From Peptococcaceae bacterium BICA1-7 (GTDB lineage: Bacteria > Bacillota > Desulfotomaculia > Desulfotomaculales > Desulfocucumaceae): a stretch of DNA of 64,000 nt. Positions within the stretch are counted from its first letter, which is position 1. Each line of letters begins with the position of its first letter. The DNA is taken from assembly GCA_000802095.1 (NCBI GenBank), contig JUEB01000009.1:248001-312000 (forward strand), read 5' to 3'. A program made the translations under genes and the position numbers. This document shows positions 877 through 22,517 of this stretch, one piece after another. The notes under the pieces are model-generated. The model made no database searches. It saw only the letters and a program-made list of their open reading frames with translations, and had not been told where the DNA came from.

Positions 877-2580
877 ATGGCGCTACAACAAATGTCAACC
901 ATTCCTCAATACACAGATTATGAACTTGATGATCTACGGAGGATTTACCAGGAAGCTTCCAAAAACCGGGATCGGAGCCTGGTGCTGAATATGGCCAACG
1001 ACGCACATTACAGGGTTGTCAACAAGAACTACGCAAATTTGAATTTGACACCCGACCGCTACCCACAGCTGTTCAGACAGCTGGATATGGCCAGAGCGAT
1101 GAACACAAAAGACCAATCCTTAAGCCTTGTATACGACAGCAATGACGACGGCTACACCGACGCCAATGTTTTGCTGGACGTAGGTCTGGCTAAAGATGGT
1201 ATTGCATGTTCGGACGCAGTTTCCACCTATATCGGAGGAGCCTATTCCCTGGTCCTGACCCTGCAGGTTTTTAAAAAGGATACGATGGAACTGGTTGCCC
1301 ATAACAACATTCAATCAATGGGCGAAGGAGAGTACACACCCATCAGCGCCAAGAGCGCCCAGGCCGTTTCCGGAAATCTGGTGGCTTATTATTTTATAGA
1401 CTATACGAAAGATCCCGGCACGCCTACCCAGCATATAGTCATAACCAAGGAACCCCAGGGGCCGGTAGCAGACCCGAAGATTACCCAGCCTGTGCAGAAA
1501 CCCAACCATACAGCTCCCCCGTGGCCTTACTGGCAATACATCAGGGTGGGTTTAAGCCGCGGCATCGGCAGCCGGGATGACGTTGATTACTGGTTTAACC
1601 AGGGCCAGTGGGACGACCGGACGGTGATGGTCCCCCTCGACGGCTCCGTAACTTATAACAGTAATATCAAGCCGCTGGTTCCCGAGGACACCATTCAACT
1701 GAATATGTCTGTAGCTCTAAAGACCGGAGGGCTCAAGGTGCTTCCCGCCGATATGCTAAACACTGTTTACCCGTACTTTTATGTAAGTCCAAGTGACCCC
1801 AAAACAATAATATTTAAGAAGCCCGCTCCCACCGACCCCCAAAGCACCGATAACGGAAATCCAATCGTGTTCGGCCCCGCGCCCTGGAACTCGGACACGG
1901 TGGTATACTTTTTTTGCCAGATTGCCGTCAAGACCGAAAGCAGCTATCCTCTGTTCGACTATTCGGGAATTATCAGCAGCGATACCCCCGATAGCGACCC
2001 CAGGGACGGAGTTCTATATATAAAGCCCTTCCAGTTTACCTGGCACTGTGTCGCCCAGGGCGTTCAAATCAAGCTTGCCGATGGCACCTCCAGGGCAGTT
2101 GAAAATATAGTGGGAAAGGAAATGGTGCTTTCAAACACCGGGGGTGAACAGGCAAAGGTGGTTGCCACCCATGTAGGCAAACACAGAGGACCGGTCCTTA
2201 GAATCCGGACAGATAACGGCTGTGAACTGGTATTGTCCGAGAGCCATGTGGTTATGACTCCGCAGGGGCCGAAACCGGCCAGTGAGCTTCAAGCCGGAAG
2301 CCAAGTCATTACGCTGGAGGGCGCTTCTAAAATCACCTGTATCTGCCTCGAAGAATATGATGGGTTTTTGTTCAACCTTGAGCTTGTCACCTATGAGCCC
2401 GGCAAAGAAGGCAGTTCCTCCATGTTTGCCAACGGTATCCTGGTGGGGGACTTCAACCTGCAAACTCATTACTACCATAACTACAGGAAACTGCCGCATG
2501 TGGTGCTGAAAAGACTGCCGCAAGATTTTCACCAGGATTTTAATAGTCTTTTAGAAGACATTGAAAAGTATAAAAAATAA
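877..2580 (+). CDS. Hint (Hedgehog/intein-like) domain protein, first gene of the cassette
   Basis: 567 residues, ATG with a GGGAGGGG site 6 nt upstream. Residues 1-390 match no family I know; they carry no signal peptide and include a proline-rich linker near 185-215. From Cys391 (motif WHCVAQG) the sequence follows a Hint fold: a charged LADGTSRAVENI segment, then an ESH motif near 455-457 in the position of the conserved histidine, then MFANGILVGDF near 516-526. The last block normally ends with His-Asn in splicing inteins; here it reads VGD, so protein splicing is not expected. Cys391-dependent cleavage, as in Hedgehog or bacterial intein-like domains, remains possible. A 40-residue tail follows. 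The gene starts a five-gene same-strand run. Function of the N-terminal part is unknown. Confidence 0.8.
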   Translation: MALQQMSTIPQYTDYELDDLRRIYQEASKNRDRSLVLNMANDAHYRVVNKNYANLNLTPDRYPQLFRQLDMARAMNTKDQSLSLVYDSNDDGYTDANVLLDVGLAKDGIACSDAVSTYIGGAYSLVLTLQVFKKDTMELVAHNNIQSMGEGEYTPISAKSAQAVSGNLVAYYFIDYTKDPGTPTQHIVITKEPQGPVADPKITQPVQKPNHTAPPWPYWQYIRVGLSRGIGSRDDVDYWFNQGQWDDRTVMVPLDGSVTYNSNIKPLVPEDTIQLNMSVALKTGGLKVLPADMLNTVYPYFYVSPSDPKTIIFKKPAPTDPQSTDNGNPIVFGPAPWNSDTVVYFFCQIAVKTESSYPLFDYSGIISSDTPDSDPRDGVLYIKPFQFTWHCVAQGVQIKLADGTSRAVENIVGKEMVLSNTGGEQAKVVATHVGKHRGPVLRIRTDNGCELVLSESHVVMTPQGPKPASELQAGSQVITLEGASKITCICLEEYDGFLFNLELVTYEPGKEGSSSMFANGILVGDFNLQTHYYHNYRKLPHVVLKRLPQDFHQDFNSLLEDIEKYKK

Positions 2581-2628
2581 TTAATCCCCTCCGGCAGTAG
2601 AAAAATCTCCGGCAAAGGATGTGTAGTC

Positions 2629-5600
2629 ATGCCTAACTTACCTCCTCCAACCTTAAGCGGAGTCAGCTATGAAAAAAATGCCAACCGGATCTCCTGCAAC
2701 TGGCAGCCTGGATCGGGACAGTATTTCATTATAGGCCTCTTCACAAACGGCAGCCTCATTGATCAGGCCAGCGCCATGGGCTTCGGCGGTGAGTTGATTC
2801 CCTCTCAAACTTTGGATGAGAATACACTATACCAGGTGCAGGTTGCTCAGACTGACAGCTTTGGCGGAACGCCGGGGCCCTTCGGGCCCCCGGCCAATTT
2901 GATTGTAAGTCCTCTGAAGAATATTGAAGTCAATAACAATGGCGTCCAGATTGATGTAAGCTGGGACTGCCCCGCCCTGGGTAATGTAACAGGAGGCCTG
3001 GTCTATGTTGTGGACCAGCAATCCGGCGATACGGTGATAATGGAGCAGTGTGAAGGCACACGGTGTCTGTTGGACCTTGGCGGCAAACTGGACCCTTCAA
3101 AAAAATACCAGATTGTGGCATACGGCACCTGCGGCATCTCCAAAGGACCCGCTTCGGACTATAGCGATCTCATCTGCCAGATTCCCACTCTGGACAGGGT
3201 CATGTACAACATTCTCGCAGAAGGAACAGGATGTCAAATCCAGGCTGTCAGCAATATCTCCTTGCCCGACAACACCCTTTTGCAATTGACGGTATATCAG
3301 GGGTCCGATGTCGCGGCCCGGGAGAGCCAGCCTTTTACCATACTGTCTCTAACTCTTGGCTACTCCCTGGACCCATCCTATATATACATGTGCCGCCTCC
3401 GTTACCAATCCGGCGGCTCCGTGGGACCCGAAAGTCAGGAGGTTCCCTTGTTGACCGCGCCTCCCCGCCTGCTAAAAACATTCTTTGACGGTCAGGCGGT
3501 GGAGGCGTTCTGGGAAAACCCTGACCTCCCGCCCCGGCCCGCATGGGGAAGCGCCGGCATAGTGGAAGGAACTTCGGTTGCAGGGGATGGAACCTTTCTC
3601 GGGGAGTATGGAAAAATAATTCCCACCCAGCCCATTGATCCGGTCAAGTCTTACTTCATCCAATTAAACCCCGTGCTTGGCAAATCCCGGGGGCCAATGG
3701 CGAATCAGATCCCTGTTATTGCCTGGACCAAAAATATTCAATCGGCGGCCTATGATGGCAACTGCCTTAAGGTTTGCTGGGAGGCAGGCCAGGGTCCCAA
3801 TGTTACAGGCTACAACCTGCTGATTAAATCCGGCGGCTCAGTATTGCGGTCGGTTCCCATGGCAGGAGCGGATTTGGCCAATGGGTACAAAATTGTAGAT
3901 ATAGAGTTGAGTCCCGGCGCTAGTTGCCAGGCTGCTTTGCAGGCTGTGGGACAGTTGTCGGAAGGCCAGCCGGGTCCACCCCAGGACATCATCACGGCTG
4001 TGCCGGGTATCCGGTCCATTGTCACCGGCGGCGACAGCATTATAGTAACCCTCATTGAGCCAACGGTAAAAACCGCCGTGGCGGGCTACCAGGGATTGCT
4101 GTACCAGGGCGGCTGTGTGGTTGCCGGCCCCGTGGCGGCAACGCTTAAAGACGGCCAATACCGCATAGAATTTCCTGTGGGCGGCCAGGGCGGTATCTCC
4201 CTCCTGGAAACCCGGGACTACTATGCCCGGGTTCAGGCAGTGGGCAGTACCCCCTCAGTATTCCAGGGGCCATTGAGCCCTGCCGGGCAGTGTCTGGTCC
4301 AGGCGCCGGAAATTCTCAACGGCGGTATGAACGGCTACCAATGGACTATGGAGTGGACTCCCTGCCGGGAAGTAGTAGTGACCGGCTATAAAATAACCCT
4401 TTCAGACCCCAATGGCAATAATCCTCAATATTTTTACACAACCCGGACTTGCCACACCGGCCTGAATAATTCCAGCGGCAACCAGATCATGGCCTCTGTC
4501 CAGGCCGTGGGAGATACTGCCGAAGGCCCGTTAAGCGCTCCCAAAAATCTATATGGAGACGGGGCAAACTATTATTTTTCAGCAACAGGAGCTTCTGCCC
4601 CGGCCTATCTTTACCGCTCTTATTCCCACCCGCCCCAGGCGGAGGATATCAACCTGTACCTGCCCGACCTCTTTAACCGGGACCCCCAGATTCAATCGGA
4701 CATTTTCAAACTTTCCAAGCCCTCCGGCTCTCCCGCGGGATTCCCGTACCTGCTCACCATAGACAGGGACAGCGCGGCCTGGAAATTCACCCCGGCAGAC
4801 CGGAATGTCCTGTGGAGTTCCTATACCGATTTTTTAAAAGACCTGGACCAGGACAGCAGCGGCGGGGGACCACTTTTAAAGCCCGGCGCTTTCAACCTGC
4901 TGCGGCAAATTATAGCCAGGGCCTTGCCCCTGACGTTCCCCGAACAGCTTTCCTACCTGTACGGCTTCAAAGCCGATGAAAGCTGCGTCGACCTCATCCC
5001 GGGCATGCGCGTCAGGCTGGACGGTGAGGTCCGGCAGTACGTCGGACCTCCCAATGACACTAATAAATACCTCAACGGCTTCGTGCCCTCGGGTACCGTT
5101 TACCTTTATCTTGATGACTACCTGCTCAACCACGATCGGCTGACAGGCTTCGACGCCTATTTATCCCTCTCTGCCAGGCCGGACGTGCCCTCCACCCAAA
5201 ACATCGGAGGCGGGGGCATCCTGGACCTGTATGCACCCCTCGGCAGGAGGGCGCTTTACCGCCTGTTCTACCCCCAGATGATTCCCGGCAGCAGCAGCAT
5301 GGGCTATGCCAATCTGACCTACAACATGCTGGTGCTGGGAGCGGACAATTACACCGACCTGGATGGCGCTGCCCGGCAGTATCTTGCACAGGGCAACTTC
5401 AGCGGTTATGACAACAAAATAATTGTAACCTTTTTCAGGGGCCGCACCGTACTGATTCCCGAAATCCCCGTAGAGATCAACGGCAGCATGCGGTACGTAC
5501 CGATAGGCACCACTATCAGAAGCATTCTGGCGCGTTTGGGACAGGTTCCTGCTTCAGGCAGATTCCTGGGGAGCATCGCTATGGAAAGATCCACCGTAAA

Positions 5601-5751
5601 CCTGGTCCAAACCGTCAAGGAAGCCCAAAGCGCTACAACCACCCCCGACCGGACTAAAATACTGCTGGCGGAAAGTGTCATGGATGGTTATGCCGATGGC
5701 ACAGTATACCTTGATCTGCCACTGCTTCAAGGTGACAGAATTTTATATTGA
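2629..5751 (+). CDS. Fibronectin-III-like repeat protein
   Basis: 1040 residues, ATG with an AAAGGA site about 9 nt upstream, 48 nt after the Hint gene. Residues 1 to about 640 are a series of roughly 85-100-residue beta-sandwich-like modules. Recurring features are a W near each module start (SCNWQPG, VSWDCP, VCWEAGQ, EWTPCRE), a Y-x-[VA]-x-[VA]-Q-A strand, and G-P-x-S/GPFGPP turns at module ends, the pattern of FN3 domains. About six or seven modules can be counted. The last 400 residues are different and rich in YLY/DLD segments, without a family I recognise. There is no signal peptide or sorting motif, so export would need another route. Likely a structural or adhesive part of the system encoded by the cassette (inference). 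Confidence 0.75.
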   Translation: MPNLPPPTLSGVSYEKNANRISCNWQPGSGQYFIIGLFTNGSLIDQASAMGFGGELIPSQTLDENTLYQVQVAQTDSFGGTPGPFGPPANLIVSPLKNIEVNNNGVQIDVSWDCPALGNVTGGLVYVVDQQSGDTVIMEQCEGTRCLLDLGGKLDPSKKYQIVAYGTCGISKGPASDYSDLICQIPTLDRVMYNILAEGTGCQIQAVSNISLPDNTLLQLTVYQGSDVAARESQPFTILSLTLGYSLDPSYIYMCRLRYQSGGSVGPESQEVPLLTAPPRLLKTFFDGQAVEAFWENPDLPPRPAWGSAGIVEGTSVAGDGTFLGEYGKIIPTQPIDPVKSYFIQLNPVLGKSRGPMANQIPVIAWTKNIQSAAYDGNCLKVCWEAGQGPNVTGYNLLIKSGGSVLRSVPMAGADLANGYKIVDIELSPGASCQAALQAVGQLSEGQPGPPQDIITAVPGIRSIVTGGDSIIVTLIEPTVKTAVAGYQGLLYQGGCVVAGPVAATLKDGQYRIEFPVGGQGGISLLETRDYYARVQAVGSTPSVFQGPLSPAGQCLVQAPEILNGGMNGYQWTMEWTPCREVVVTGYKITLSDPNGNNPQYFYTTRTCHTGLNNSSGNQIMASVQAVGDTAEGPLSAPKNLYGDGANYYFSATGASAPAYLYRSYSHPPQAEDINLYLPDLFNRDPQIQSDIFKLSKPSGSPAGFPYLLTIDRDSAAWKFTPADRNVLWSSYTDFLKDLDQDSSGGGPLLKPGAFNLLRQIIARALPLTFPEQLSYLYGFKADESCVDLIPGMRVRLDGEVRQYVGPPNDTNKYLNGFVPSGTVYLYLDDYLLNHDRLTGFDAYLSLSARPDVPSTQNIGGGGILDLYAPLGRRALYRLFYPQMIPGSSSMGYANLTYNMLVLGADNYTDLDGAARQYLAQGNFSGYDNKIIVTFFRGRTVLIPEIPVEINGSMRYVPIGTTIRSILARLGQVPASGRFLGSIAMERSTVNLVQTVKEAQSATTTPDRTKILLAESVMDGYADGTVYLDLPLLQGDRILY

Positions 5752-5782
5752 GCCTGCGTCTACATGGTGAAAGGAGTTTTCC

Positions 5783-8700
5783 ATGAGTCAGCCTTTCTTT
5801 GAAAAAAGTGACGCCAGCCGTCTGTTTTTCCTCCAGGAACAGCCCCCCGCAGGTCTAGGGGGCTACCGGTGCGTCTTTTTGCCTCCATCTGGCATTACAC
5901 CCCCAAGCCCCCTGGACCTTTCCGGCAGCTTTGCCATCGCCGGCGGACTGTACCTGTTCTTGAACAGCCCTCCTCAGGACGAAGCCGCTTTCATTGACGC
6001 GGTGCAAAACTACCTGGCAAAGCAGCGGCTGGACCGGGCCCGTTTCATGTGGCTCAGCAATCCAAACGAATCTCCGGTTTGCTGGAACCCTTTTTCACTT
6101 ACCATGGAACCGGACGGCACCCTGGGGCGTCTGGCTCAATTTCCGCTGCGGAATTACATGCTGGCGCTGGGCGCAAGCTGTATGATCTCGCTAAACGACC
6201 AGGCTGAGCCCACCGGTTTTGAAATAAGGCAAAACACCACCGGGGACAGGTGGATTTACCTCGATGTTTTTCCCGGCAAACCTTTCTACAGCACTGACAG
6301 CCGCGTCACCCTGAGCTTTACCGGACCCTATACCGGCAGCCTGGGCTTCGGCATTTCCGCCGGCCTGGAAGCCGGGACAGACTCACCGGGGGATCTGGAT
6401 GTACTGGACGCGGGAATCCGGTACTACTTTAACGACCCTGAGAACCCGGGCTACCTGTTATCACTCCGCTACAGGATCTTCAGCGGAAAGGGAACCCTTC
6501 CCCTGCAAGTTTTTTTTGATCCTTTAAACCCGGAGCAGGGAACGCGAACTTTCTTCGGCCTGCCGGCAGGTGAACCTCCCCTGGCCCTGGATTCCTGCTT
6601 CCAATCATGGGTGGGAATGCCATTAAAGCTTTCTCCGGAAGCCGGAGGGGACACAAAATTTGTCTTTGCGCCCTATGCCCAGACTCCCTGGGCACAGGAT
6701 ACCGATCCTTATACCCTGATACCTTCAGGGGTATTCCGTATTCTTCTTCCCCAAAGACTGTCCAGCGATTACACCCAACCCGCCGTGCGGCTTCTGGCCG
6801 GGACTTCCGCCCTTGAATACCTGGGTTTTCCGGCTGACGAAGGAAATCTACTGTATTTTATCCCCGGAAAACCTGCCTATGCCCCCTGCTTTTCAATAAC
6901 CCCCGGGCAGGATTCCACGGGACAGGCAAGATTAGGGGTTAACACCCAGGACACCCTGCTGTCGGACCAGGCCCTGACCTCTTATGTATATGTCTCTTCG
7001 GGACAGACCGGGACGGCAGGCTACTACGCCCAGCCCGAAAACTGTGTCATGTACCACCTGGAACAGCAAACACCTGCCGGCACACCTTTACTGGACTATA
7101 TGGAAATTCCCTTTAAGGCGCTGCCACTGCCGCAAAACCTGCCTGAACAGGCATTTTCCATGGTTCCTTACGGGGACCTGCCCAACCTTTATCACGGTGA
7201 ATATTTCGGATCTTTTGAAATACAGGTATTGTCTCCCGCCCGCCGGCTGACAATCAACGCCCTTACGGCAGAAGCCTCCAGCCGAAAGGCAGAAGCTGTC
7301 TCAGCACAGTCCGCTGCAGACCCGGTCAGTCTGGGAACCACAAACCACGGCTGGCTGGCTCAGTTCAACGACCAGCGCACCATTTGGCAAACCCTGACCC
7401 TGGCCAGCGCCAGGGGAGGGACACAGCAGTTGGTTTTGGCCGGGGCGGAGGGGGGAAACATCAGCGGTGTTTTGAGGGATGCCCTGCAGACAAACCGCCT
7501 GTTCCTGGTGGCGGAGGGCAGCAAGTTCTCTGCCCTGGGGGCCTTCCTGTCCTCGGTTCTTTCTATTGAAAGCTTCAGCTTTGACCTGAACACCGAAATG
7601 TGGCCCGATCAGGAAACAATATTTATTATGAAGTATACCGGTTCCTCTGTTCTGGAACTGGCGTCGGACTTAAACAGATGGACGGGCCCCCTGGATTTCT
7701 CCGAGGGCGCTGTTACCCGGCAGCACCTGTTGGGGATTTTACAGGACGCCGTCCAAATGGCGGCTACTAATACATACTTCCAGGACTTTGCCGCGATCAT
7801 CCAGGACCCCTTCTGGAACGGTATTCTGGCATTGAATGTATTTGCGCCTCTTTGGGGCCTTCCTCCCGAACTGGCGGGACTGGCGGGAGGGATCGACCCG
7901 GATGAATTCAAGGCGCATCACCTGGGAATACAGGTAAGCCCGGTTGAAGTTCAGGACACCGGAGGTTTGCCTGTCCTTACCATGAAAGAAAGCTCACTTT
8001 TCGGCCTCATTTATTACAACAGTGACAGTATACTTCAACAGAGCGGCCCGCCTTATCAGTACCAGGTCAAAAACTTAAGCATACTATTTGAAAACTCCGC
8101 CATCAAACAGTTTGGGTGCAGCGTCGAACTTCTGGTCAATGAGCTTTTCGGCGAAACAGTAAGGCTGCAAAACTGCAAGCAGGATCCCAACGTAATGCTC
8201 TTTAATGGAAAATACCAGGATCTGGACGGCCGCAAGATCTTTACCCTTAACAACCTGGAGGCCAACACTTTCAAGGCGGACGGCCGGGTATTGGATGAAG
8301 TGGAAATATTAAGCGCCAGTTTCATTACCGAAACCACAGAAGAAGAGCAGAAGGCCGGGAAGGATATCCAAACCCGGTTTTCCTTCCAGGGCAATTTACG
8401 GTTTAATGCGCTGGAAGGCTTCGACCTGTTTTCCTTCGGCAGCGAAATAGGAGATGCAGGTAAAAAGGGACAGCTCAATTTTTTAAACCTGTCGGTCAAA
8501 ATGAGTTTTCCCCAGGCATCACCTGAAAACAAAACTTTTACCTTTGACGCTCAGGACCTTTCCTTTAATCAGGCGGCCAGCAAAGCCCGCCGGGAAAGCC
8601 TTTACAGCCATTTCCCGCTGAAACTCAAGGGATTTGTGCAGGGCCAGGAGGGCGGTTCGCCCAAAAGTATGGGCTTTAATAATGTTACCACCCCCATCAG

Positions 8701-9121: not shown

Positions 9122-9140
9122 TTGAAGGCAGGGGAGTACG

Positions 9141-10337: not shown

Positions 10338-10361
10338 TTGATTGATAAAGGAGCAAACCCT

Positions 10362-13300: not shown

Positions 13301-16300
13301 CCTCCACGAACAATTCACCATCGGTGAAAGGCATACCCCGCCCTGGCATGTTATCGAAGGCGCCACACCGGCGGCCTCCGGGAAAAAACTCCGCCTGCAG
13401 CGCTCCCGCGCCCGTGGCCTCAGCCGTTTAAACCGCATGCTCCCCGCATTCCCCCTTGATAAAATAATGTCGGAGCCGCGGCTTGACTGGCAGGCGGTCA
13501 CCCGGCTGAAAAACGCCGATGATCAGGACAGTTTCAACGTGGACCTGGAATTCTGTGTACTGTACACTGTTTCGGATACCAAATCCCTGGTTGGTGATAA
13601 TGGACAGCCCGCCCCGGTAAAGGTGGCAGCACTGCCTTTGCTCTTTGTGCCCAACGCTATCCCGCCGGGGGTTTCGGACCGGAAAGCACTAAAAGCGGCG
13701 GACGCTGCAGAGTCCCCTTTTTCCATGTTGGCGCACGGCATGCTGGAAAGGGCTCTGGCGGCCCGCATGGCCGTTACCCAAAGCATATACATCAGCCTAT
13801 ACGATTTGCAGGTCATAGCCACCCACCTGCTGGCCGGAATGGCCGACGAGGATTTTACCTATGCCGGCCTGTCGGACTATTTCAAAAACCATATGACCTT
13901 CCGCCTGCGTCTGCCGGAAAAGCCACCGGCAGGAACAGAAGCTCCCTCGGGCACCATTTTCCCGATGATCCCCGATTTAAAGCTTGAAAGCCAGGATGGC
14001 CTGGTCGGCGTACACTACCTGGACGACGCACGGCTTCTGGCCAGCCCCGTCTATGAAGAAAAACTCAGTGCATATTTTGAATCCTTCAACGTCCGCTACC
14101 AGAACCAGGCGGAAAAAATAGGCGACCACAACCCCGCCGGTCTGAAATCCAAAAACGCCGCTCCCGCCGGAGAAACCACCTCGGCCTTCATTTTCAGGGA
14201 TTATTTCCTGATGATTACCCGGAGCGTCATTCAGGCCGCCATGGATTATCTCCAGAACTATATCTACCAAACCCCTGGGGACAGAGCCGTATCACTGTTT
14301 TCCATAGCACAGGAAACAGCATCCCAAAGCGGCCAGCCCGGCCTGGAAAACCCGACGCCCTATACCATTGCTCTGGCCAACCAGGACCGGGCGGACTTGC
14401 TGGACACCGCGTGCGCTCCCACACTTAGCCTTGTGCTCTATCAAACCAGGAACGGGGATACGGTAAAAAGCATCGCAGATAAATTCGGGATAACTCCCGA
14501 AGCTTTGACCGGCCTTACCGGCAGCAGCGGAACCCTGCTGAACGCCGGACATCCGGGGATGCTGAAGCCCGGCGGGCTAATCAGCGTGGGCAGCCTGCAG
14601 TATACGGTGGAAATAGACGGGGAGCCACTGGACTACGTCGCGGCCTTGTTTTACATAACCGAAGAAAGCCTGATCCGGGCCAACCCCGGAATAGACCGCC
14701 AGCCCCTGCAAAAGGGGCAGGTTCTGTCCATCCCCGGCGCCAAATATCAGATCCGCGAGGCAGATACCTTCCAGTCGGTGGCGGACGCCTTCCACCTCAC
14801 CCTGCCGGACCTGACCGGATTTAGCCAGGAGGATGAGGGCATACTGGCGGAGCTTTCGGTGTGGAACATTCCACCCTTTACCGTCACCATCCGGGAAGGA
14901 GACAGCCTCCGCTCCCTGGCTGAAAGATACAACCTAAATCTGGAAGAATTGCTGGATGACGGCCTGAGCCGGCAGGAAGACCTCTTTTTAAGAAATACCG
15001 GCCTGCTGGTGCCCCAAAGGCCGGACATGGAAGGGAGCCAGCTGGTGGCGGAGGTTATGAAAAAAACCGCGGTCAACGACATAGCCGCCTCTCTTTCCCG
15101 CTTCCTGCTCAACGGGCTTCGCATCCCCATGCCGGCGGATGAGCCTGACTTCAGGAAACTGTTTTCACTGTACAACCTCCTGGGACAGCAGATTGATGCG
15201 CCCGAAACAAGCACGACGGAATATTCCCTGACCCTGTCCAACCCGGACGGTGTTTCATGGATTTTACCTGCCAGCACTAAATATATATTCGACGGGGATG
15301 ATTACGACGCCATCGCCAGGTGCCGGCAGCCCTTTACCCCGGAATTCACGCCACCTGCGCCTGTCGCCTCATTCGCCTACCAGCCCGGCCGCTATGCCTT
15401 AAGCCAGGCGGTCCACTGGCAGAACCCCGCCGCCGGAGAATTGGCGGGAGAGGGGGACGGCGGCCTAAGTACCGCCGGCGAGCCGGTAATATACCCATTT
15501 CCCTCCGCGCTGCTGGCCGGGATCCTGGATTTGAGCCCCAGAGTCCCCGGGCAGGACGGCTTTAAATATGACCTGGTCATCGGCATTCAGGAGTCTCCCG
15601 GCGTACCGCTGAAGGTTCAGCCGGTGGAAAGCTACTGCTGGGCCACCGTAATGGATTTCAAGATCCACCGGGTCTACCGGCCTGTTAACACCCTGGAAGC
15701 GATAAACAACAGCTACCAACTGCTTGGAACCGATGAACAGGGTCGAAAAACATTGCAAAGCATTTGGGAATATATGTTGAGCGGCCCGGGGAAAGAAGAC
15801 CGGGCCGGCTTGTACATACTTTATTCCGCCGACCCGTCCCAGCCCAATAACCAGGGCTGTCTGTCCGGACTGCTCCAGGATAATGCCACCTTCCTGCTGA
15901 AAACCAACCTCTCCACCACCAGCCATTCCTCTCCCGAACTGAAGGCTGGACACTATGGCCCGGATACCATGGATGGAGCCCCGCTGCAGGAATACTATGC
16001 CAGTACCGGTGACCCGCAAAACTTCCTCAAGCTCCTCTGGGAATGCAGTGTTGTCAACACCGGCGGCTATTACCTGAACTACACCGAACAGGGGGGCGGC
16101 CCCCTGCCCGGCACCATATTCAACGAAGCCGGAGAAGCATCGCTGAAACTGCTGGTCTTATTCGACAGCCTGAAGCACCTTCCCGGCCCGGCGCCGCATC
16201 CGGACATGCTCAGGTTTTGCAATTGCGCGGTTATTTGTCAAAACCTGGACACCTCCACCGCCCAGCTATACGTGGAGGCTTCCAGCTACGCCATCAAAAA

Positions 16301-19300
16301 CCCTGACGACAGCCAACCGGCCACCCTGCAAAACACCGCGCTGGCTATGGGCTTTGACTCCACCCTGGCTATGGCGGAAGTAAACCGGGAGGTCAAGCTG
16401 ATCCTGAAAACCGGCGCGACAATAACGGTCAACGCCGCTTCCTATGTGATCAAGCAGGGGGATACCCTGGATAGTGTGGCCGAGGTATTGACCGGCGGCA
16501 GCCTGGATGCGCTGGTGGACACAATCAAGGACACGGCGGGGCTGTTAACCCTCAATGCGCTTTTGCAGTACCAGCCCGGCCAGCTGCAACTGGTTAATAC
16601 CATTCCCACAGGCTCATTAGGGTTTGAATTAGACCGCACAAACCCCGACCCGGATGATACGCCCTACGGCCAAATGACGGCAAGCCAGCAGATGAACCTG
16701 CTCTTTCACCTGCTGGGCTATCAAATACAGGACACAGATTATTTCAGCACCGTGAACAAAGAAGGTTCGGAAGGCCTTCCGGCAGGTCCCGCCAATGCCC
16801 AGGGAGCCGGACAGCAGGACAAGACCCTGTGGAATTATAAAAACAGCCTCCAGGCTTCCAACTTTGCCAGAGCCGAATACAACTACGCGCCTGCGGTGCC
16901 CGGCCTGCCGCTGCCCCAGGACAACTCTTACGCGGGACTGGCAGAAGGCTCAAACATGACGTTGTCCCTATACTTCCAGGATGTATTCGGCAACCGGCCT
17001 GACGCTGCCCCGGCTTCCCGGGTAACTCTGCCCTTTGCCTACAGCGACAGCGTTATCTCGGTTTCCATGTGGCCGGGAATCGCGGTCAGCTACAGTGTTC
17101 AAAAAAGCAGCCCGCCTGAATTCAGGCTTTGCCTGCAAGCCGCCGTAAGCCTTGCCAACTACCTGAGCGGCCCCGGCCGTTCCCTGACAGCCAGCGCCAA
17201 AAGCGTGCTGACCGACAGGGAAAAGCTGACACAGGCTTACTACCAGTTGATTCAGCCCGACCTGCAGGTAAGCGTCTCCGCCAGCCTGGATCAGCCGGCG
17301 GAGAATACACCGCCTGAAATCCACTATATATGGAAATCCCGGTGGTTCCAGTTGCTGTCCGCCCAGTTGATATTCCTTAATGCCCTGGCGGAGCTGGAAA
17401 GCGTAAAAATACAGGCCGCCGCGGGAAATACCCTGTCCGGCCTGTGCACGCCATACCTGGTCAGTCCGGGGGCCCTTGCGGAAAACAACGGGGCTCTGCC
17501 TGCCGACACGCTGTTTGATATATCCGAAACCAATCCCCTGGTGCTTCCTCAAAAAGAAGTGGTCCGCCAGGGCGACACTCTTATAACCATATCGGAACGC
17601 CGGGGAGGAACTCCCGGCCCGGTGGCGCTGGCAATCCAAAACAGCCAGGCGCCCTTGCCTCCGGGAACGGTGATAAAAACTCCGCAGCGTCAAGTGCCTG
17701 CCTCTGCCCAGGAGCCAACCGGCGACCGCTCACTGGCGGACCTGTGGCGGGATTTCAACCTGTGGCCCCTGGGTTTGGCTACCGAGAACAGTGACAGGGC
17801 TGATCTATTGAGGCAGGGCGCTGTGGTTTCGCTACAGGGGCTTTCCCTGCAGGTACCGGCGGAAGCCAGCTTTAATCAGCTGGTGGAACAGTTCATGAAC
17901 TACACGGTGAGCGTAGATACCTCCCTGGCCCAGGTGGCTGAGAATTATTCCATGCCCCTGTCATCCCTTGCGGACGCCATCCGCTCACAGGCGGGAATAT
18001 GGCGGGAGGGCGCGGTTTTCACCTATGGAGGCCATTCCCGGACTGCTGCTTTAAATGACAGCCTTTACGATCTGGCAGAAGCATTCTCAATGGACGGGCT
18101 GCCCGTTACGGTTGAAACTCTGGCTCAGTCCAACAAGGACAATGCCACCCTGCTTAAAACCGGCGCCATACTGAGCACGGGCCTGTTTTCCATCCAGTTA
18201 AGCGATCTGGTGCAGGCCAACCTGGAGGTGAAGGGCCTGTTTGTGCCCGGCGCGGTTTTCCGGGTGTCCAACTATGTTACCGGTAAACTGGATACACTGG
18301 CGGGGCTGGAGTCGGACCCGGGCTTTAAAGCAGAGGATATTGCCGCGCTCAACCAGTATTTGCCCAATCTCTTCGGTGCCGGGACGCCCCTTTTCATTTC
18401 AATGGCAAATTATATTCCGGCCCCGGGAGAAACACTTTCCCACCTGGTGGCGGCAAGGAACGTCACCTTTGAGGAATTGGGCCTGGCCAACGGCAGTCAC
18501 CCGCTGAAGGCCCAGGACAGGGAAAACCTGGAGGTTCCTGGACGGCAAAACCTGCCCGACGGCCGGGAGCTTATGGTTCCCTGCGTCACGGCGGTCAACC
18601 CGGATACCGGCCTTACTGAAAGCTTAAGCGACATAGCGGCACGTTTCAACAACGGCCTGGATTCCCTTGGCCTGGCCAGGATAAACTGGCACATGCCCTA
18701 TCTCTTCAGTCCGGGACAGCAGGTGATAGCGGGGGGCAAAACCCTTACCATCCTGGAAACTGATAATTTCAACCAGCTTATCCATAGGTTTTTAGAGCTG
18801 GGAGTTCCCCTTACAGACCAGGACCTGGTCAATGCACTGGACAAGCCGGGAATTCTTGCCCCGGGCGCCCTTTTCTCGGCAACATGTCCCAGTATTTCCG
18901 TTATTAAGCCCTCGGGTCAGGCTTTGCTCTTTCACGTAAAAACTTCGTATTTGCTGCTGGTCAACCGTACCCGGCCCGGCTTGCTAATACCGGGCACCAG
19001 GGTTTCACTCAAACTGCCCCAAACCGGAGAAATGGTTTCACTGGATACCAGAGACTCGGAAACACTCAATACACTTCTGACAAACTTCCAGGGCACCTAC
19101 GGTCCGGACATTGGGTGGGACGATTTGGCTTCGGCTGTTGAAAACCTGGATATTCTCATACCCGGCGCCGCCTTTATTCTGCCGCCGTCAGCCTGCGTCC
19201 TGGAATGCTCACTGGAAGCGAACCTGCCCGGGGTATTGTTCCCCGTGGACGTAACCCTGGCCATGGAGAGGGTGCAGTATGAAATAACCGGGGCAGTGCT

Positions 19301-22300
19301 GGGCGTATTGCAGGCAGCCGGTGTCCCTCAGCAGGTAATCGAAATACTTGACACTTTAAAAGACCAGCAGTTCATCAGCGGAGACAGTTTCAGGGCCAAG
19401 CTCAGGGAAAGTCTGGCCGATGCATACAGCCTGCTGCCCCTGGACCTGACCCTGAGAATCTCGGCTTCACCGTCCACACTGGTAAGTGCGGCGCTTGAAG
19501 ACACTGTGCCTGTTCAGAAAGCATTGACAACACTCTCTCCCTACATGCCTGAAGGAACGGACACATCGGATGCCATGAGCCTGACGCAGTTTGCTATTGA
19601 CTTTGAAGATGCCTTTAATGATGGCGAAAACTTCCTGAAGCTGGCAGTGGGCCTGGGACGTGAGCCCAACGGAGTTGGAGAAAAAGCCAAAAAGCTGTGG
19701 GCGGTCTCTTTCGGCCAAAACGGTTTTGAGTTTTCAATCAAAAATGAGCAGGTATCCTACTTCGCTATGCGGCCCCTGTCCAACGTTCTAATCAGCCGGG
19801 ATGCCCGGATGAGTACCTATCAGAGGGGTCAGGGTTTGACCAGCGCCCCGGCCATGCACTTTGCGAATGTGGAGCTTGACCTCTGGGCGCGGCAGTTCCT
19901 GGAAAGCGTTGATTTATTCCTTTCCGGCCCCTACTCGGTGCCTGCGGCCCGGTACAATCCCGGCGCGGTTGCCAGGCTCCTTGACTGCAAGGAAGAACTT
20001 TCGGAGGCCATTTCGTTTTACCTGATAAACCTGCTTGAATCTCCCGGCTATGCCGGAGACATAAATAAAGCCCGGGATGAATTTATGGACAGGCTTAAAA
20101 TAAGGCTGGCGGACGCTTACTCCGTGGAAACCATCCTGCAGTTCCCTGTGGATGTGCCTCACAGCAGCTTTACAGATGTCCGCACCGCACCAAGGCTTTC
20201 AGGCAAGCCCGTAAATATAGGGTTTGTAACCGGTGCTACAGAAGATATTGAAACCATGGCCCAAAAGCTTAATGTGAGCCAGCAATTCCTGCTGGACACC
20301 ATTTCCACTATGCCGGGCATTTTAAACTTCTCCGCTGACGGCCAGGTGGTCCGTGTACAATACACCCCTCCCCCGGGAACGCCGCAAACCGTGGAACTTC
20401 TCCCGGGCATGACCTTGAAATCACTGGCTGAAACAACCCTGGGGCTGGAGAATGTGTACGACTTAATCGGCAGACTGACCGTCATTGAAGGGGATTCTCT
20501 GTTTGCTCCCCATATCACCGTCAACATTACCGGCGTTAAAGGAACGGTGGGCGATACCGGCCAGCCGATGCCGGGAGTCCCGGCCAGGAGCTTCCAGGCT
20601 GCGGCCGGATACTTCGACCTTCCCGTTTCCGACCTTGGCCGGGCAATACAAAACATCCCCGGCATTTTTGCCGTCGCTTCCTTAAGCTACAACGGCCGGG
20701 AAACGGCAGTGACCCCGGTGGACACCCTGGGAACCGTCTCCGCACGGCTCGACTCCACTCCCGAAACACTGGCCCAGTATTATGCTGTGGAGCCCGGCCT
20801 TTTAACCCAGGGTATTTCCGTATACAGCCTGCAGGTACTGCCCCAATACGATATCTCCACTGCCAAAGTCCCTCTATCTGAGCCAGGCTCCCACCTTACC
20901 TTCTTTGTAGACGTGAAATCCGGATGGTGGGCCAAAAAAATGTTTTTCAACCTGGAGTACGCCATCAATGAAATTGAGTTTGATATATCCAATGTTCAAA
21001 ATATAGAAGACTACCAGGCTTCCTCCTGGTTAAGCTTTGTCATTCCCCTCGGCAGCGAAGACACCCGGCTGAAGGTCAAGTCAGGCCTCGGACAGCAGGA
21101 GGTTCCTTTGCTTATGCGGGCCTACCCGCCGTCTCCGGTGCTCATGAGCCAGGAAGGTGAGGGAAAACAGGTGGAAGCTGTCTGGCCGGACCAAAATCCT
21201 CCACTGGATGATTTAAAGAGCTGGGAATTCGAATACAGCTTTGAATACCGCATGGCAGCCCAGGATGAAATTTCCACCTTTGTCACCTTCAATGACGTCA
21301 TCCACGGATCAGACTATGCCCCCATGGCGGGAGACGGCGCCGACCCTCCCCTGGACCTATTTGAGGCACTGGCCCAGTTTGCCTTCAATTATCCGCAATT
21401 ACGGGATGACCTTGAACTACTGCCATTGACCTCCGGCGGGTCAGCGCCGTCCCAGGTGGCAGGCACGGCCATCGAAACCTTTGTGCAGCTTGCCGAATCG
21501 GTAGCCCAGGCCTGGTCCGCACCTGACGGCAGGCTTACTGGCGATACTGGAATCATTGCTGAAACCCACGAATATATATTGACCACCACCCATGACCAAT
21601 CACCCGGGCACTGCCTGAAAACCTTGATCTTTCATTCCGGGACAGCCAGCGAAAGCCTCTGGCCAAGCCATGTATGGGTATGGGACGATAATGACGGAAA
21701 GTGGTTGTCCCTGGAGCCAAAAGCTATAGAACCAGACAGCCGGGAAGCTGTTTTTGAATTCCCTGCCGGCATCACGCCGGAGAGATCTATCTGTTACAAA
21801 GCAGGGTTTAGCGGGCTTAACGTGATCAGGTACCAGAGCGGGGGAGCCGGACTGTCCATTTTCCGTAACCGCTACCTGGTAAGCAGCGGAGTAACCGCCG
21901 GGCCTTTCGTGTATACTACACCCTCGGTCAGGTTTCCCAACATGTTCACTCCATGGATTGTCCGCCCGGAAGAGTATCATCTAAGCGCAGGCACAGCCCA
22001 GTATTCCGGTAACTTCTTCGACAGTCTGCTCTCCGGACTCAGCAGCTTTTTTATAAAGCTGTTCGACCCGGAGAACCCGGCCTGGAATGACACAAGCACC
22101 CGTCAGATCGACCTGGCCGCAGGTTACTCCTTCGCGCTGTCTTTGGACCAGGCAGAAATGGTGGATATAAGAACCGTTACTCCGGTCCTGCTGGTGACGG
22201 TATATCCGTTCAAGATCAAGGAGGATTACAAAACAGATGAAGGCAGCTTCGTTTACAACCTGGCAACAGCAATCAGCCGCTGGAAAGATCAAAACCTCAG

Positions 22301-22442
22301 CTTCCAGCCTTCGAACCCGGGATTTTTCCTGTTTGATCTCAAAATATACGAATATAAAACCGACGGACAGCCCCGCCCGGTACTGGAGCTTTCCAATCTC
22401 CAGTACCAGTTTTCAAATTTCTTGAATAAAAATGATGAATAA
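10362..22442 (+). CDS. Giant (~4026 residues) LysM-repeat protein
   Basis: I chose the ATG at 10362 because AAAGGAG lies 8 nt upstream; an in-frame TTG directly after the preceding stop lacks one. Residues 1 to about 1030 are beta-rich and contain long alternating hydrophobic strands near 880-1000 (for example KVKVLFVTIHLSFELT). From about 1360 there are LysM-like units: NGDTVKSIADKFGIT, REGDSLRSLAERYNL, then KQGDTLDSVAEVL (about 2030), RQGDTLITISERRG (about 2400), PGETLSHLVAARN (about 2690) and several weaker copies down to about 3470. They are separated by unrelated stretches rather than forming one array. The last 500 residues are again beta-rich and end without an anchor motif. No signal peptide. 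LysM binds peptidoglycan or chitin in known proteins; many copies here are degenerate. Probably the scaffold of the cassette system (inference). Confidence 0.85.
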   Translation: MTVKNTGNTTIEDIWNEAGRQAQTGGPVVLSNSLMPSETLWAEVAVALGVKEIDIYPPAGQKVFIGPVTGDRFTVRGLLSLLGFTDCTCDIVIWVTGGAPGFSFQIGRQEEGWTFGDWYYLFRTSSFNRLNQRNVKFSWDSSKPMTGEQSPLSFYGEVELTGTLGFLLRFTTGNTVAWQGPILFSSEWDNRPAFDLKSPLVNPGTGDSFTIGFLNVSSPYLEARATYQDSEEKPAVKLPHTDVNFGMLLNETGMTLKPFTFEVPIMDYSSVLCLTGIYGSPGDTLSLGDVTNWLLNLPAPPSLPAPLDGLFNSVGLSSFQAMFTSGNSFDLLSAAVTVSSKSSEPLWRIYGDDIVLKDIYLLSGVQWIAAGYTYYDNTFGADLKVFGLLFNIEISWATGWPLVIKGELTPSDGLPLKFSDLIQKLSCGLDTSGLDDFFSLTFSRVGAELTPSGDNFALRVMTEADVSLKLFGKEYLGLHNLYLLFTAAKDLKGQIQYSVYASGDITILGFHLPAELVLSGDQKQFTVGPFSFTFGDIVKFMVQLIHPSWDFELPAPWNVLNSIGFENLTLTFDLIEKSVALSTGMRVDFGFIDITDISLTYHWKTPKGQKEGVIVSLKGTFLGLPISTEDGEDSLSWDVVNEHPPEVPGAGNETFHLEYLGIGQHISFRDSSQLKTIGDVITALETNFRPVSRAETPLALAGGLIFNENSGWLLGTKFTFLKMITLSAIFNDPQLYGLRVALAGEKAGSLSGLEFEIFYKKVTDTVGMYHTELILPDAFRYLEFGAVSITLPIVVIDIYTNGNFRIDAGFPHNGNFERSFAVQVFPYIGLGGFYLAYLDGSTSETVPRIDNGQFRPVIEFGFGLAVGLGKTIHKGPLKAGLSLTVAGILEGTLAWFHPDNKDQDTEVYYCICGTVGITGQLYGEVDFCIIKASVEVLAYARVMLIIQSYEPIAIALDIGVEAHVKVKVLFVTIHLSFELTLHEQFTIGERHTPPWHVIEGATPAASGKKLRLQRSRARGLSRLNRMLPAFPLDKIMSEPRLDWQAVTRLKNADDQDSFNVDLEFCVLYTVSDTKSLVGDNGQPAPVKVAALPLLFVPNAIPPGVSDRKALKAADAAESPFSMLAHGMLERALAARMAVTQSIYISLYDLQVIATHLLAGMADEDFTYAGLSDYFKNHMTFRLRLPEKPPAGTEAPSGTIFPMIPDLKLESQDGLVGVHYLDDARLLASPVYEEKLSAYFESFNVRYQNQAEKIGDHNPAGLKSKNAAPAGETTSAFIFRDYFLMITRSVIQAAMDYLQNYIYQTPGDRAVSLFSIAQETASQSGQPGLENPTPYTIALANQDRADLLDTACAPTLSLVLYQTRNGDTVKSIADKFGITPEALTGLTGSSGTLLNAGHPGMLKPGGLISVGSLQYTVEIDGEPLDYVAALFYITEESLIRANPGIDRQPLQKGQVLSIPGAKYQIREADTFQSVADAFHLTLPDLTGFSQEDEGILAELSVWNIPPFTVTIREGDSLRSLAERYNLNLEELLDDGLSRQEDLFLRNTGLLVPQRPDMEGSQLVAEVMKKTAVNDIAASLSRFLLNGLRIPMPADEPDFRKLFSLYNLLGQQIDAPETSTTEYSLTLSNPDGVSWILPASTKYIFDGDDYDAIARCRQPFTPEFTPPAPVASFAYQPGRYALSQAVHWQNPAAGELAGEGDGGLSTAGEPVIYPFPSALLAGILDLSPRVPGQDGFKYDLVIGIQESPGVPLKVQPVESYCWATVMDFKIHRVYRPVNTLEAINNSYQLLGTDEQGRKTLQSIWEYMLSGPGKEDRAGLYILYSADPSQPNNQGCLSGLLQDNATFLLKTNLSTTSHSSPELKAGHYGPDTMDGAPLQEYYASTGDPQNFLKLLWECSVVNTGGYYLNYTEQGGGPLPGTIFNEAGEASLKLLVLFDSLKHLPGPAPHPDMLRFCNCAVICQNLDTSTAQLYVEASSYAIKNPDDSQPATLQNTALAMGFDSTLAMAEVNREVKLILKTGATITVNAASYVIKQGDTLDSVAEVLTGGSLDALVDTIKDTAGLLTLNALLQYQPGQLQLVNTIPTGSLGFELDRTNPDPDDTPYGQMTASQQMNLLFHLLGYQIQDTDYFSTVNKEGSEGLPAGPANAQGAGQQDKTLWNYKNSLQASNFARAEYNYAPAVPGLPLPQDNSYAGLAEGSNMTLSLYFQDVFGNRPDAAPASRVTLPFAYSDSVISVSMWPGIAVSYSVQKSSPPEFRLCLQAAVSLANYLSGPGRSLTASAKSVLTDREKLTQAYYQLIQPDLQVSVSASLDQPAENTPPEIHYIWKSRWFQLLSAQLIFLNALAELESVKIQAAAGNTLSGLCTPYLVSPGALAENNGALPADTLFDISETNPLVLPQKEVVRQGDTLITISERRGGTPGPVALAIQNSQAPLPPGTVIKTPQRQVPASAQEPTGDRSLADLWRDFNLWPLGLATENSDRADLLRQGAVVSLQGLSLQVPAEASFNQLVEQFMNYTVSVDTSLAQVAENYSMPLSSLADAIRSQAGIWREGAVFTYGGHSRTAALNDSLYDLAEAFSMDGLPVTVETLAQSNKDNATLLKTGAILSTGLFSIQLSDLVQANLEVKGLFVPGAVFRVSNYVTGKLDTLAGLESDPGFKAEDIAALNQYLPNLFGAGTPLFISMANYIPAPGETLSHLVAARNVTFEELGLANGSHPLKAQDRENLEVPGRQNLPDGRELMVPCVTAVNPDTGLTESLSDIAARFNNGLDSLGLARINWHMPYLFSPGQQVIAGGKTLTILETDNFNQLIHRFLELGVPLTDQDLVNALDKPGILAPGALFSATCPSISVIKPSGQALLFHVKTSYLLLVNRTRPGLLIPGTRVSLKLPQTGEMVSLDTRDSETLNTLLTNFQGTYGPDIGWDDLASAVENLDILIPGAAFILPPSACVLECSLEANLPGVLFPVDVTLAMERVQYEITGAVLGVLQAAGVPQQVIEILDTLKDQQFISGDSFRAKLRESLADAYSLLPLDLTLRISASPSTLVSAALEDTVPVQKALTTLSPYMPEGTDTSDAMSLTQFAIDFEDAFNDGENFLKLAVGLGREPNGVGEKAKKLWAVSFGQNGFEFSIKNEQVSYFAMRPLSNVLISRDARMSTYQRGQGLTSAPAMHFANVELDLWARQFLESVDLFLSGPYSVPAARYNPGAVARLLDCKEELSEAISFYLINLLESPGYAGDINKARDEFMDRLKIRLADAYSVETILQFPVDVPHSSFTDVRTAPRLSGKPVNIGFVTGATEDIETMAQKLNVSQQFLLDTISTMPGILNFSADGQVVRVQYTPPPGTPQTVELLPGMTLKSLAETTLGLENVYDLIGRLTVIEGDSLFAPHITVNITGVKGTVGDTGQPMPGVPARSFQAAAGYFDLPVSDLGRAIQNIPGIFAVASLSYNGRETAVTPVDTLGTVSARLDSTPETLAQYYAVEPGLLTQGISVYSLQVLPQYDISTAKVPLSEPGSHLTFFVDVKSGWWAKKMFFNLEYAINEIEFDISNVQNIEDYQASSWLSFVIPLGSEDTRLKVKSGLGQQEVPLLMRAYPPSPVLMSQEGEGKQVEAVWPDQNPPLDDLKSWEFEYSFEYRMAAQDEISTFVTFNDVIHGSDYAPMAGDGADPPLDLFEALAQFAFNYPQLRDDLELLPLTSGGSAPSQVAGTAIETFVQLAESVAQAWSAPDGRLTGDTGIIAETHEYILTTTHDQSPGHCLKTLIFHSGTASESLWPSHVWVWDDNDGKWLSLEPKAIEPDSREAVFEFPAGITPERSICYKAGFSGLNVIRYQSGGAGLSIFRNRYLVSSGVTAGPFVYTTPSVRFPNMFTPWIVRPEEYHLSAGTAQYSGNFFDSLLSGLSSFFIKLFDPENPAWNDTSTRQIDLAAGYSFALSLDQAEMVDIRTVTPVLLVTVYPFKIKEDYKTDEGSFVYNLATAISRWKDQNLSFQPSNPGFFLFDLKIYEYKTDGQPRPVLELSNLQYQFSNFLNKNDE

Positions 22443-22517
22443 ATCCGGGGTAAAATAAGGGAAAAAATAACTGTCTACTTAGGGACGCCCACCTGGTGAT
22501 ACTTTTTCTTTAATGCG

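What the first reader, a model, noticed from the sequence alone, without database searches (positions are those of the whole stretch)
877..22442. Five-gene 21.6-kb cassette of Hint, FN3, beta-rich, EEP-nuclease and giant LysM proteins
Five genes in one direction with 48-, 31-, 19- and 24-nt gaps, a single terminator at the end and no other genes inside. Two are over 1000 residues and one is about 4026. Only the EEP-fold protein has an evident enzyme activity. Hint plus nuclease plus large repeat scaffolds is reminiscent of secreted toxin or injection machineries, but no signal peptides, tail or sheath proteins are present. I know of no described system with this combination. The DUF6603-type group of large beta-rich proteins is one family worth testing for genes 3 and 5; I am not certain of it.
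Basis: partly seen in the sequence, partly recalled or inferred. Interest (0 to 1): 0.8.

Follow-up and report, generated by a model that had tools for sequence, protein, structure and literature searches.

The report
Giant-protein cassette with swappable nuclease gene
A gene block scattered over at least ten bacterial phyla keeps the same two huge proteins but carries different enzymes between them, most of them predicted to attack DNA or RNA, so it looks like an undescribed machine for holding and perhaps delivering such enzymes.

Summary
The five genes lie as described, and the same order (Hint, FN3, beta-rich g3, enzyme, giant LysM g5) recurs in 17 further cassettes in Pseudomonadota, Actinomycetota and Bacteroidota. 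g5 relatives occur in at least ten phyla; g3 precedes g5 in 81 of 82 distinct loci with room. The window copy is an insertion of about 24 kb between mqnC and a DedA-like gene.

The new point is the place between g3 and g5. It holds unrelated enzymes: DNase-I-like EEP (19 loci, window included; 4 more carry an EEP upstream), ComEC-type MBL (27), a second MBL group (3), an HNH, a toxin-type deaminase, an unknown family (9), small-gene pairs (14) or nothing (8). In three loci the enzyme is fused to the N-terminus of g5. The best-conserved part of g5 is predicted as a porin-like beta-barrel; g3 has no clear structural match.

Best reading: an undescribed, non-phage cassette that cages and probably delivers exchangeable nucleic-acid-attacking effectors. 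The anatomy is well supported; delivery is inference. Defence and extracellular DNA degradation are not excluded. DUF6603 is not supported for genes 3 and 5.

The parts
877..2580 (+). g1: Hint protein, 567 aa; left edge of the cassette
   Evidence: family A5; adjacent homologues in 15 further cassettes plus Tistrella and Embleya
2047..2466 (+). Hint domain of g1 (about residues 391-530); Cys391, Thr445, His457, Asp525 each 19 of 19
2629..5751 (+). g2: FN3 protein, 1040 aa
   Evidence: Pfam fn3 1.9e-8; family in 48 of 90 rows
4552..5748 (+). conserved C-terminal domain of g2 (residues 642-1040), present without the FN3 part in short versions
   Evidence: 4 sequences
5783..9121 (+). g3: 1112-aa beta-rich protein, constant partner of g5; no Pfam family, no clear structural relative
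9141..10337 (+). g4, exchangeable enzyme slot: EEP fold, DNase-I-like, 398 aa; Asn7, Glu59, Asp252, Asn254, His390 each 17 of 17, Asp389 15 of 17
10362..22442 (+). g5: 4026-aa LysM giant (ATG start; the longest ORF begins with TTG at 10338)
12324..13328 (+). best-conserved part of g5 (residues 663-997 of the longest ORF): predicted porin-like beta-barrel
14439..14957 (+). LysM repeats of g5 (residues about 1368-1540); more divergent LysM-like repeats follow by eye
20775..22439 (+). conserved C-terminal region of g5, no known relative found
22517..22549 (+). intrinsic terminator hairpin

Best explanation
The block is a mobile cassette that encodes one protein machine with an exchangeable enzyme. 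Shown by comparison: g3 and g5 go together; the place between them holds one to three enzymes of unrelated folds, mostly with intact nucleic-acid-attacking active sites; the enzyme can be fused to the N-terminus of g5, and g1 can be fused to g2; the whole moves between phyla; no gene family that tracks the enzyme type, as an immunity gene would, was seen in the flanks fetched. Inferred: the enzyme docks at the N-terminal end of g5 and is held inactive by the g3/g5 assembly, which would let a DNase be made without signal peptide or immunity protein. LysM and FN3 parts bind a target surface, the Hint protein matures itself or g2 by self-cleavage, and the amphipathic barrel of g5 acts as cage or conduit through which the enzyme reaches a target cell after release by lysis or an unknown export route. 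In short, it works like a toxin complex whose effector is a separate, swappable gene.
For: Co-occurrence: g3 before g5 in 81 of 82 distinct loci with room; the same 8 plasmid records with g3 alone and with g5 alone. Full order g1-g2-g3-enzyme-g5 in the window, Tistrella, Embleya and 15 of 15 further cassettes checked, in three phyla. Enzyme classes: EEP related to DNase I, MBL related to ComEC nuclease, HNH (Pfam just under cut-off; PtuB 2.5e-22 in PADLOC), Bd3614/MafB19-type deaminase. Active sites kept: EEP 17 of 17, MBL 28 of 28 aligned proteins. Fusions of two different enzyme families to g5: L007, L011, L074; g1-g2 fusion in L130. At least 15 changes of slot type on the g5 tree. Barrel: Z 12.9, rmsd 7.1, 222 aligned; 212 of 982 chains at Z 8 or more; strands 914-995 amphipathic (z 3.1-4.5; mean over 37 g5 strands 1.16, over 23 g3 strands 0.39). 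Some enzymes carry signal peptides (L039, L043; the L074 fusion; upstream EEP of L023, L025, L033), which points outside the cytoplasm for those.
Against: No secretion gene, receptor or delivery step was identified. Signal peptides sit on a few enzymes but on no g3, so enzyme and scaffold may part. Slot type follows the tree (15 changes against 51.8 in shuffles), so swapping is rare, unlike fast-evolving polymorphic toxins. Eight loci have no slot enzyme; 14 have a pair of small genes in its place that may be split-off N-terminal pieces of g5; the L050 MBL has lost its metal motif (by eye). g1 is dispensable: 26 of 50 cassette genomes had no g1 match, and in 9 of the 24 with one it did not lie at the cassette. 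Flanks right of g5 were short in many loci, and small upstream gene families of unknown role do occur in g2-less cassettes, so an immunity gene is not excluded. The g5 model has pTM 0.48. No activity has been measured.
Confidence: 0.45

Rival explanations
1. An intracellular anti-phage or anti-plasmid defence system: g3/g5 sense an invader and unleash an exchangeable nuclease, as Avs, Lamassu or Septu do with theirs.
For: Slot enzymes resemble defence effectors in PADLOC: the L054 MBL resembles LmuA (1.8e-12), RTasMBL (2.4e-9) and Avs1a (1.4e-4); the L021 HNH resembles PtuB (2.5e-22). Almost no signal peptides. Patchy and horizontally moved. One plasmid copy stands near a type III-B CRISPR locus and a SIR2 gene, another in a plasmid stretch with E2/UBC and JAB-type genes.
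Against: No NTPase or known sensor domain was found in the window's five proteins by Pfam or NCBIfam; g1-g4 have no PADLOC hit (g5 not scanned there). LysM, FN3 and Hint are not typical of defence (recalled). Other annotated neighbourhoods, such as Tistrella, are mostly metabolic genes. Some enzymes have signal peptides.
Confidence: 0.2
2. A surface or released scaffold that displays extracellular DNA- or RNA-degrading enzymes for feeding, biofilm remodelling or DNA processing; LysM anchors it to cell wall.
For: LysM and FN3; DNase-I-like and ComEC-like enzymes; signal peptides on some enzymes; no gene family that tracks the enzyme type seen in the flanks.
Against: g3 and g2 lack signal peptides and g5 has no convincing one. 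A deaminase and one apparently dead MBL do not fit DNA feeding. It does not explain the barrel.
Confidence: 0.2
3. The slot enzymes act on something other than nucleic acid (EEP and MBL superfamilies also contain enzymes of lipids and sugars), and the cassette is a lipid- or polymer-handling machine built on amphipathic beta sheets.
For: The structural hits for g5 are membrane-facing beta proteins, and the (weak) hits for g3 are of the same sort (LptD, porins, ApoB). The MBL profile also reaches a phosphorylcholine esterase (7.8e-4) and the EEP profile reaches nocturnin (1.6e-5). The C6 slot family has no nuclease signature.
Against: The best hits are nucleases (DNase I 5.5e-14, ComEC 2.1e-12), and HNH and deaminase folds share the slot.
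Confidence: 0.12

Closest known systems
Polymorphic toxin systems (PMC3482391; abstract start seen, passages)
   Same: Exchangeable nuclease and deaminase effectors, Hint domain, large repeat proteins, wide horizontal spread.
   Different: The effector is a separate gene before, or fused to the N-terminus of, the giant protein instead of its C-terminal tip; Hint is on another protein; no immunity gene recognised; no RHS, filamentous or known trafficking domain in Pfam.
Tc toxin complexes (recalled; no call compared them directly)
   Same: Giant proteins without signal peptides, an enzyme held by a large beta-rich protein, a pore: the way of working I propose.
   Different: No Tc, SpvB or RHS Pfam domain in any of the five proteins; LysM, FN3 and Hint instead; predicted porin-like barrel in place of a helical channel.
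Defence systems with exchangeable nucleases (Avs1, Lamassu, Septu, retrons)
   Same: MBL and HNH effectors of the same broad families.
   Different: No NTPase or sensor found; giant beta-rich partners; LysM, FN3 and Hint.
DUF6603 proteins (PF20248)
   Same: Large all-beta proteins of similar look; found elsewhere in 2 of 11 cassette-bearing genomes tested.
   Different: No supported sequence relation to g3 or g5.
Bacterial outer-membrane porins
   Same: Predicted fold of g5 residues 663-997.
   Different: No convincing signal peptide; part of a 4000-aa protein; present also in Streptomyces and Embleya, which have no outer membrane.

Membership tests
Polymorphic toxin system | toxin domain at the C-terminus of a large polypeptide | tested here: not met
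   enzyme is a separate gene upstream of g5, or an N-terminal fusion to g5
Polymorphic toxin system | cognate immunity gene next to the toxin | tested here: inconclusive
   (+ strand ORFs, families in 3 or more loci): none that tracks slot type; but flanks right of g5 are short and small upstream families of unknown role occur in g2-less cassettes; nothing conserved left of g1 by eye in 15 cassettes
Polymorphic toxin system | exchangeable effector domains of nuclease or deaminase type | tested here: met
   (as separate genes)
Polymorphic toxin system | Hint or other release peptidase | tested here: met
   g1, catalytic Cys 19 of 19, but on a different protein from the enzyme and not in every cassette
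Tc toxin complex | TcA/TcB/TcC domains (RHS, SpvB, TcdA-type) | tested here: not met
   no such Pfam hit up to E 0.1 in the five proteins
Contractile injection system or tailocin | sheath, tube, baseplate proteins | tested here: not met
   none in Pfam or PHROGs for the five proteins (PHROGs gave only a LysM lysis family, 0.0089)
Prophage or phage module | homologues in phage genomes | tested here: not met
   g3 and g5 core: no match in 50,697 phage records; g5 core in one of 2.9 million viral contigs; gene 4 in none
DUF6603 (PF20248) | match over the curated cut-off | tested here: not met
   12.2 bits against 27, 1 of 8 core sequences; g3 0 of 9
DUF6603 (PF20248) | remote homology by profile-profile comparison | tested here: inconclusive
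   probability 1.9% with g5, 0.2% with g3; the DUF6603 side had only 4 sequences
Anti-phage defence system (PADLOC) | match of core proteins to known systems | tested here: not met
   g1-g4: no hit; g5 was not scanned in PADLOC; slot MBL and HNH of other cassettes do match effector models
Outer-membrane porin fold | closed 16-18-strand beta-barrel | tested here: inconclusive
   predicted only; Z 12.9, rmsd 7.1 over 222 residues, model pTM 0.48
EEP/DNase I superfamily (g4) | conserved Asn, Glu, Asp-x-Asn and Ser-Asp-His motifs | tested here: met
   (Asp of the last motif 15 of 17)

The most novel reading that the evidence does not exclude
A new class of non-phage protein-delivery machine, spread over at least ten phyla, in which two giant beta-rich proteins cage a separately encoded, swappable nuclease or deaminase and pass it through a porin-like barrel into target cells.
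Probability: 0.33. Interest if true: 0.93.

Novelty: categorically new. Interest (0 to 1): 0.8.

Why it matters
Two giant protein families without a Pfam name, and a swap site for predicted DNA- and RNA-attacking enzymes between them, sit in many genomes as hypothetical proteins. If the cassette delivers its enzyme, it is a new route of protein translocation apart from phage tails and known secretion systems. If it is defence, it is a new sensor type. Either way the swap site gives a direct handle for experiments, and the caging idea (a signal-less DNase with no recognised immunity gene) is testable.

Tried and rejected
DUF6603 membership: rejected for lack of a sequence match. Phage or tailocin origin: rejected; the viral structure library gave nothing for g3. 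Homology of g3 and g5 N-terminal parts to each other: none. PDB sequence relatives of g1, of the g5 N-terminal quarter, of the g5 C-terminus and of slot family C6: none significant. g3 against PDB folds: best Foldseek E 0.011 with probability 0.08, best VIA Z 4.1; I do not claim a new fold from this, since parts of a 1112-residue model are poorly tested in one search. Internal promoters and terminators: at chance. Literature: seven answered searches gave no description of the cassette in their listings; the library is open-access only. The small-gene pairs in cyanobacterial and some Bacteroidota slots were first counted as possible cargo; since g5 is shortened at its N-terminus in the same loci, I now think they are split-off pieces and do not count them as enzymes. 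Slot labels for the tree and tallies were assigned by me; of the four 'EEP upstream' loci three matched the EEP profile and L025 was labelled by its likeness to L023. Aegerolysin as a name for small upstream genes of L023/L033 was a guess and had no Pfam support for the one protein tested.

Limits: the genome scan kept the best 80 of 246 relatives, so counts lean to close relatives of the window. Rarity is from samples: 1 of 398 in the window's phylum, 3 of 345 and 1 of 346 in two others, each count including the centre genome. The alignments hold duplicate copies of one record (L022 = L004, L034 = L005). The signal-peptide rule is my own crude script. The tree is a quick one without bootstrap; 40 of 84 inner branches are starred.

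Full report
WHAT IS THERE. Searches give five ORFs on the + strand with gaps of 48, 31, 19 and 24 nt. Gene 5 most likely starts at the ATG at 10362 (Met9 of the longest ORF), which is nearly invariant in its family. A strong hairpin at 22517-22549 follows. Pfam finds FN3 in gene 2 and LysM in gene 5 and nothing in genes 1, 3, 4 up to E 0.1; NCBIfam finds the intein-type Hint start in gene 1, under its cut-off.

AN INSERTION. The genome is G000, 4.75 Mb. The EEP gene has no match in 97 of the 99 other relatives searched, including two of the same genus and five of the same family; two same-order genomes gave weak partial matches. In the same-genus genome G002, mqnC and a DedA-like gene are about 50 nt apart and selA follows; in the window's genome about 24 kb lies between the same two genes: a UbiE-like methyltransferase (by eye), a small gene and the cassette. 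Of the five relatives with mqnC, four keep mqnC-DedA-selA and one keeps mqnC-selA without a DedA match; a sixth had no mqnC match. The nearest g5 relative is that of Rhizobium terrae, 60% identical over 460 columns, grouped with SH-aLRT 100. So the block was very probably gained horizontally.

THE SAME CASSETTE ELSEWHERE. A g3 probe finds 8 of 72,556 plasmid records; a g5-core probe finds the same 8, and so does the core of a Chitinophaga. A genome scan with the g5 core found 246 relatives, 80 kept. With plasmids and one viral contig they span Bacteroidota, Pseudomonadota, Cyanobacteriota, Acidobacteriota, Actinomycetota, Chloroflexota, Vulcanimicrobiota, Verrucomicrobiota, Bacillota and Ignavibacteriota. 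Of 88 distinct loci including the window, g3 was found upstream of g5 in 81: 80 by ORF picking and one more, L074, by six-frame search. Six others (L024, L037, L041, L048, L058, L083) end before g3 could be seen. L027, with 816 nt of room, is the one miss. g2 was found in 48 of 90 rows.

THE FIVE IN ORDER. Search of 50 of the cassette genomes with a gene-1 profile gave hits in 24. In 15 of these the hit lies at the cassette; in the other 9 it lies elsewhere, so Hint relatives also occur apart. Fetching the DNA of the 15 and searching it showed g1-g2-g3 in that order in 15 of 15, and an alignment of 19 g1 proteins keeps Cys391, Thr445, His457 and Asp525 in 19 of 19. They are in Streptomyces, Magnetospirillum, Rhizobium, three Pseudomonas, Rhodanobacter, Oceaniradius, Breoghania, Dyella, Sphingomonas, Sediminibacterium, two Chitinophaga and one Bacteroidetes MAG; Tistrella and Embleya add two. 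Genes left of g1 differ by eye, so g1 is the edge. In the Bacteroidetes MAG a second copy of g1 is fused to g2 (1786 aa).

THE SWAP SITE. Between g3 and g5 lie genes of different families. My labels over 88 distinct loci: EEP 19 (window included), MBL 27 (one to three tandem copies), second MBL group 3, HNH 1, deaminase 1, unknown family C6 9, EEP upstream of g3 instead 4, pairs of small genes 14, none 8, undetermined 2 (tally of the 87 besides the window). The EEP family profile finds DNase I (5.5e-14). The MBL profile finds the ComEC nuclease domain (2.1e-12). Pfam names the HNH of L021 (8.1e-4, just under cut-off) and the Bd3614- and MafB19-type deaminase of L082, whose zinc motifs look intact by eye. 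EEP catalytic residues are kept in 17 of 17 (the Asp of the last motif in 15) and the HxDxDH motif in 28 of 28 aligned MBL proteins. The L050 MBL, not in that set, has lost the motif by eye. Three loci have the enzyme fused to the N-terminus of g5: C6 in Azospirillum B510 and Mycetohabitans, MBL in Niastella. On the g5 tree (87 rows) slot type needs at least 15 changes (9 is the least possible; 51.8 in shuffles), with an EEP pair inside the MBL part. So enzymes were replaced several times, but not often.

NO RECOGNISED IMMUNITY GENE. grouped + strand ORFs around the cassette. Right of g5 only split parts of g5 and groups seen in 3 loci recur, but many flanks there are short. Left of g3, in cassettes without g2, small families of 12, 11, 9 and 6 members recur; the first three span several slot types, so they do not look like cognate immunity, but this is not excluded. 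(The family of 6 lies in three cassettes that do have a short g2.)

THE SCAFFOLD. The g3 model is confident (pLDDT 86.6, pTM 0.75) but has no clear relative among the solved or viral structures searched. The g5 N-terminal quarter (pLDDT 82, pTM 0.48) contains the best-conserved part of the system, residues 663-997, predicted as a porin-like barrel: Z 12.9, rmsd 7.1, 222 aligned; 212 of 982 chains at Z 8 or more. Its last strands are strongly amphipathic (z 3.1-4.5), the other g5 strands less so (mean of all 37 is 1.16), the g3 strands hardly (0.39). No sequence relative is in the PDB. Signal peptides are absent from g3 (0 of 78), g2 (0 of 19) and g1 (0 of 3); of the slot enzymes 4 of 54 pass a crude rule, of which L039 and L043 look real; the 3 of 90 g5 hits look spurious.

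HOW IT MAY WORK. A DNase made in the cytoplasm without signal peptide or immunity gene must be harmless there. Its position next to, and sometimes on, the N-terminus of g5, near a large predicted barrel, suggests that g3 and g5 hold it. LysM and FN3 suggest binding to a wall or matrix; Hint suggests a self-cleavage step in assembly or release. This resembles toxin complexes in working, but no such family's defining parts were found. The same enzyme classes are also used by defence systems, so a sensor-nuclease role stays open, as does a role in degrading DNA outside the cell.

LITERATURE. Seven answered searches of the held open-access library gave no paper on the cassette in their listings; beyond listings I saw only passages of PMC3482391. 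Most subscription papers are not held. Statements about Tc toxins and about how the defence systems act are recalled.

VERDICT. Real, widespread though rare, mobile and apparently undescribed. The anatomy (two constant giant partners, a swap site for nucleic-acid-attacking enzymes, Hint and FN3 partners in many) is well supported; delivery is inference.

Noticed in passing
window 40867-46992: tRNA-Pro (40867-40944) followed by a phage-type integrase gene (41280-42329, -) and an AT-rich stretch (29-37% GC) with three ORFs of 391, 147 and 580 aa without any Pfam hit: probably an integrated island.
   Followed up: partly
L137, about 0.4-1.2 kb before the window: A UbiE-like methyltransferase (by eye), about 50% identical to copies at the other end of the mqn cluster in four of five relatives, lies inside the inserted stretch beside the cassette.
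   Followed up: partly
L130:6328-11688 (oriented), genome of L072: Gene 1 and gene 2 fused in one 1786-aa ORF, preceded by a second gene-1 copy; three tandem MBL genes follow g3.
   Followed up: partly
L009:17237-19158: Paenibacillus plasmid cassette without slot enzyme has a gene with a Nal1 C-terminal (protease) match directly before g3 and, by eye, a lipase-like gene before that.
   Followed up: no
L007:15581-16513: A gene that by eye looks like a GH18 chitinase lies a few genes upstream of the Azospirillum B510 cassette.
   Followed up: no
L050:6700-7868: MBL slot protein of Streptomyces sp. NBC_00572 has lost its metal-binding motif by eye: a possible dead enzyme in the slot.
   Followed up: no
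L041, L042, L045, L051, L053, L061, L064, L066, L067, L085 and L077, L086, L087, L089: Two small genes stand in the slot where the N-terminus of g5 is shortened; they may be split-off pieces of g5.
   Followed up: partly
L062, L078, L080, L081, L083, L084, L088; fused in L007 and L011: Slot family C6, about 500 aa, with GxGHQ and EGxxT motifs and no PDB relative (Pfam tested on one member: none); by eye reminiscent of GT-B glycosyltransferases.
   Followed up: partly
L007, L011, L043, L077, L086, L087, L089 and L062, L078, L080, L081, L084, L088, L074, L065, L039, L008: Cassettes without g2 have small recurrent genes left of g3, several with signal peptides by eye, of unknown role.
   Followed up: no
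L151-L154: True DUF6603 proteins (frames of 900-1500 aa) occur elsewhere in two cassette-bearing genomes, three of them in the genome of L053, Leptolyngbya PCC 7375.
   Followed up: partly
L092: One IMG/VR contig carries g3 and a split g5; with no other phage link it may be a mis-called provirus.
   Followed up: no
L055: g5 of this Pseudomonas cassette ends after 2219 aa, while its close relatives L056, L057 and L060 have about 3950 aa.
   Followed up: no
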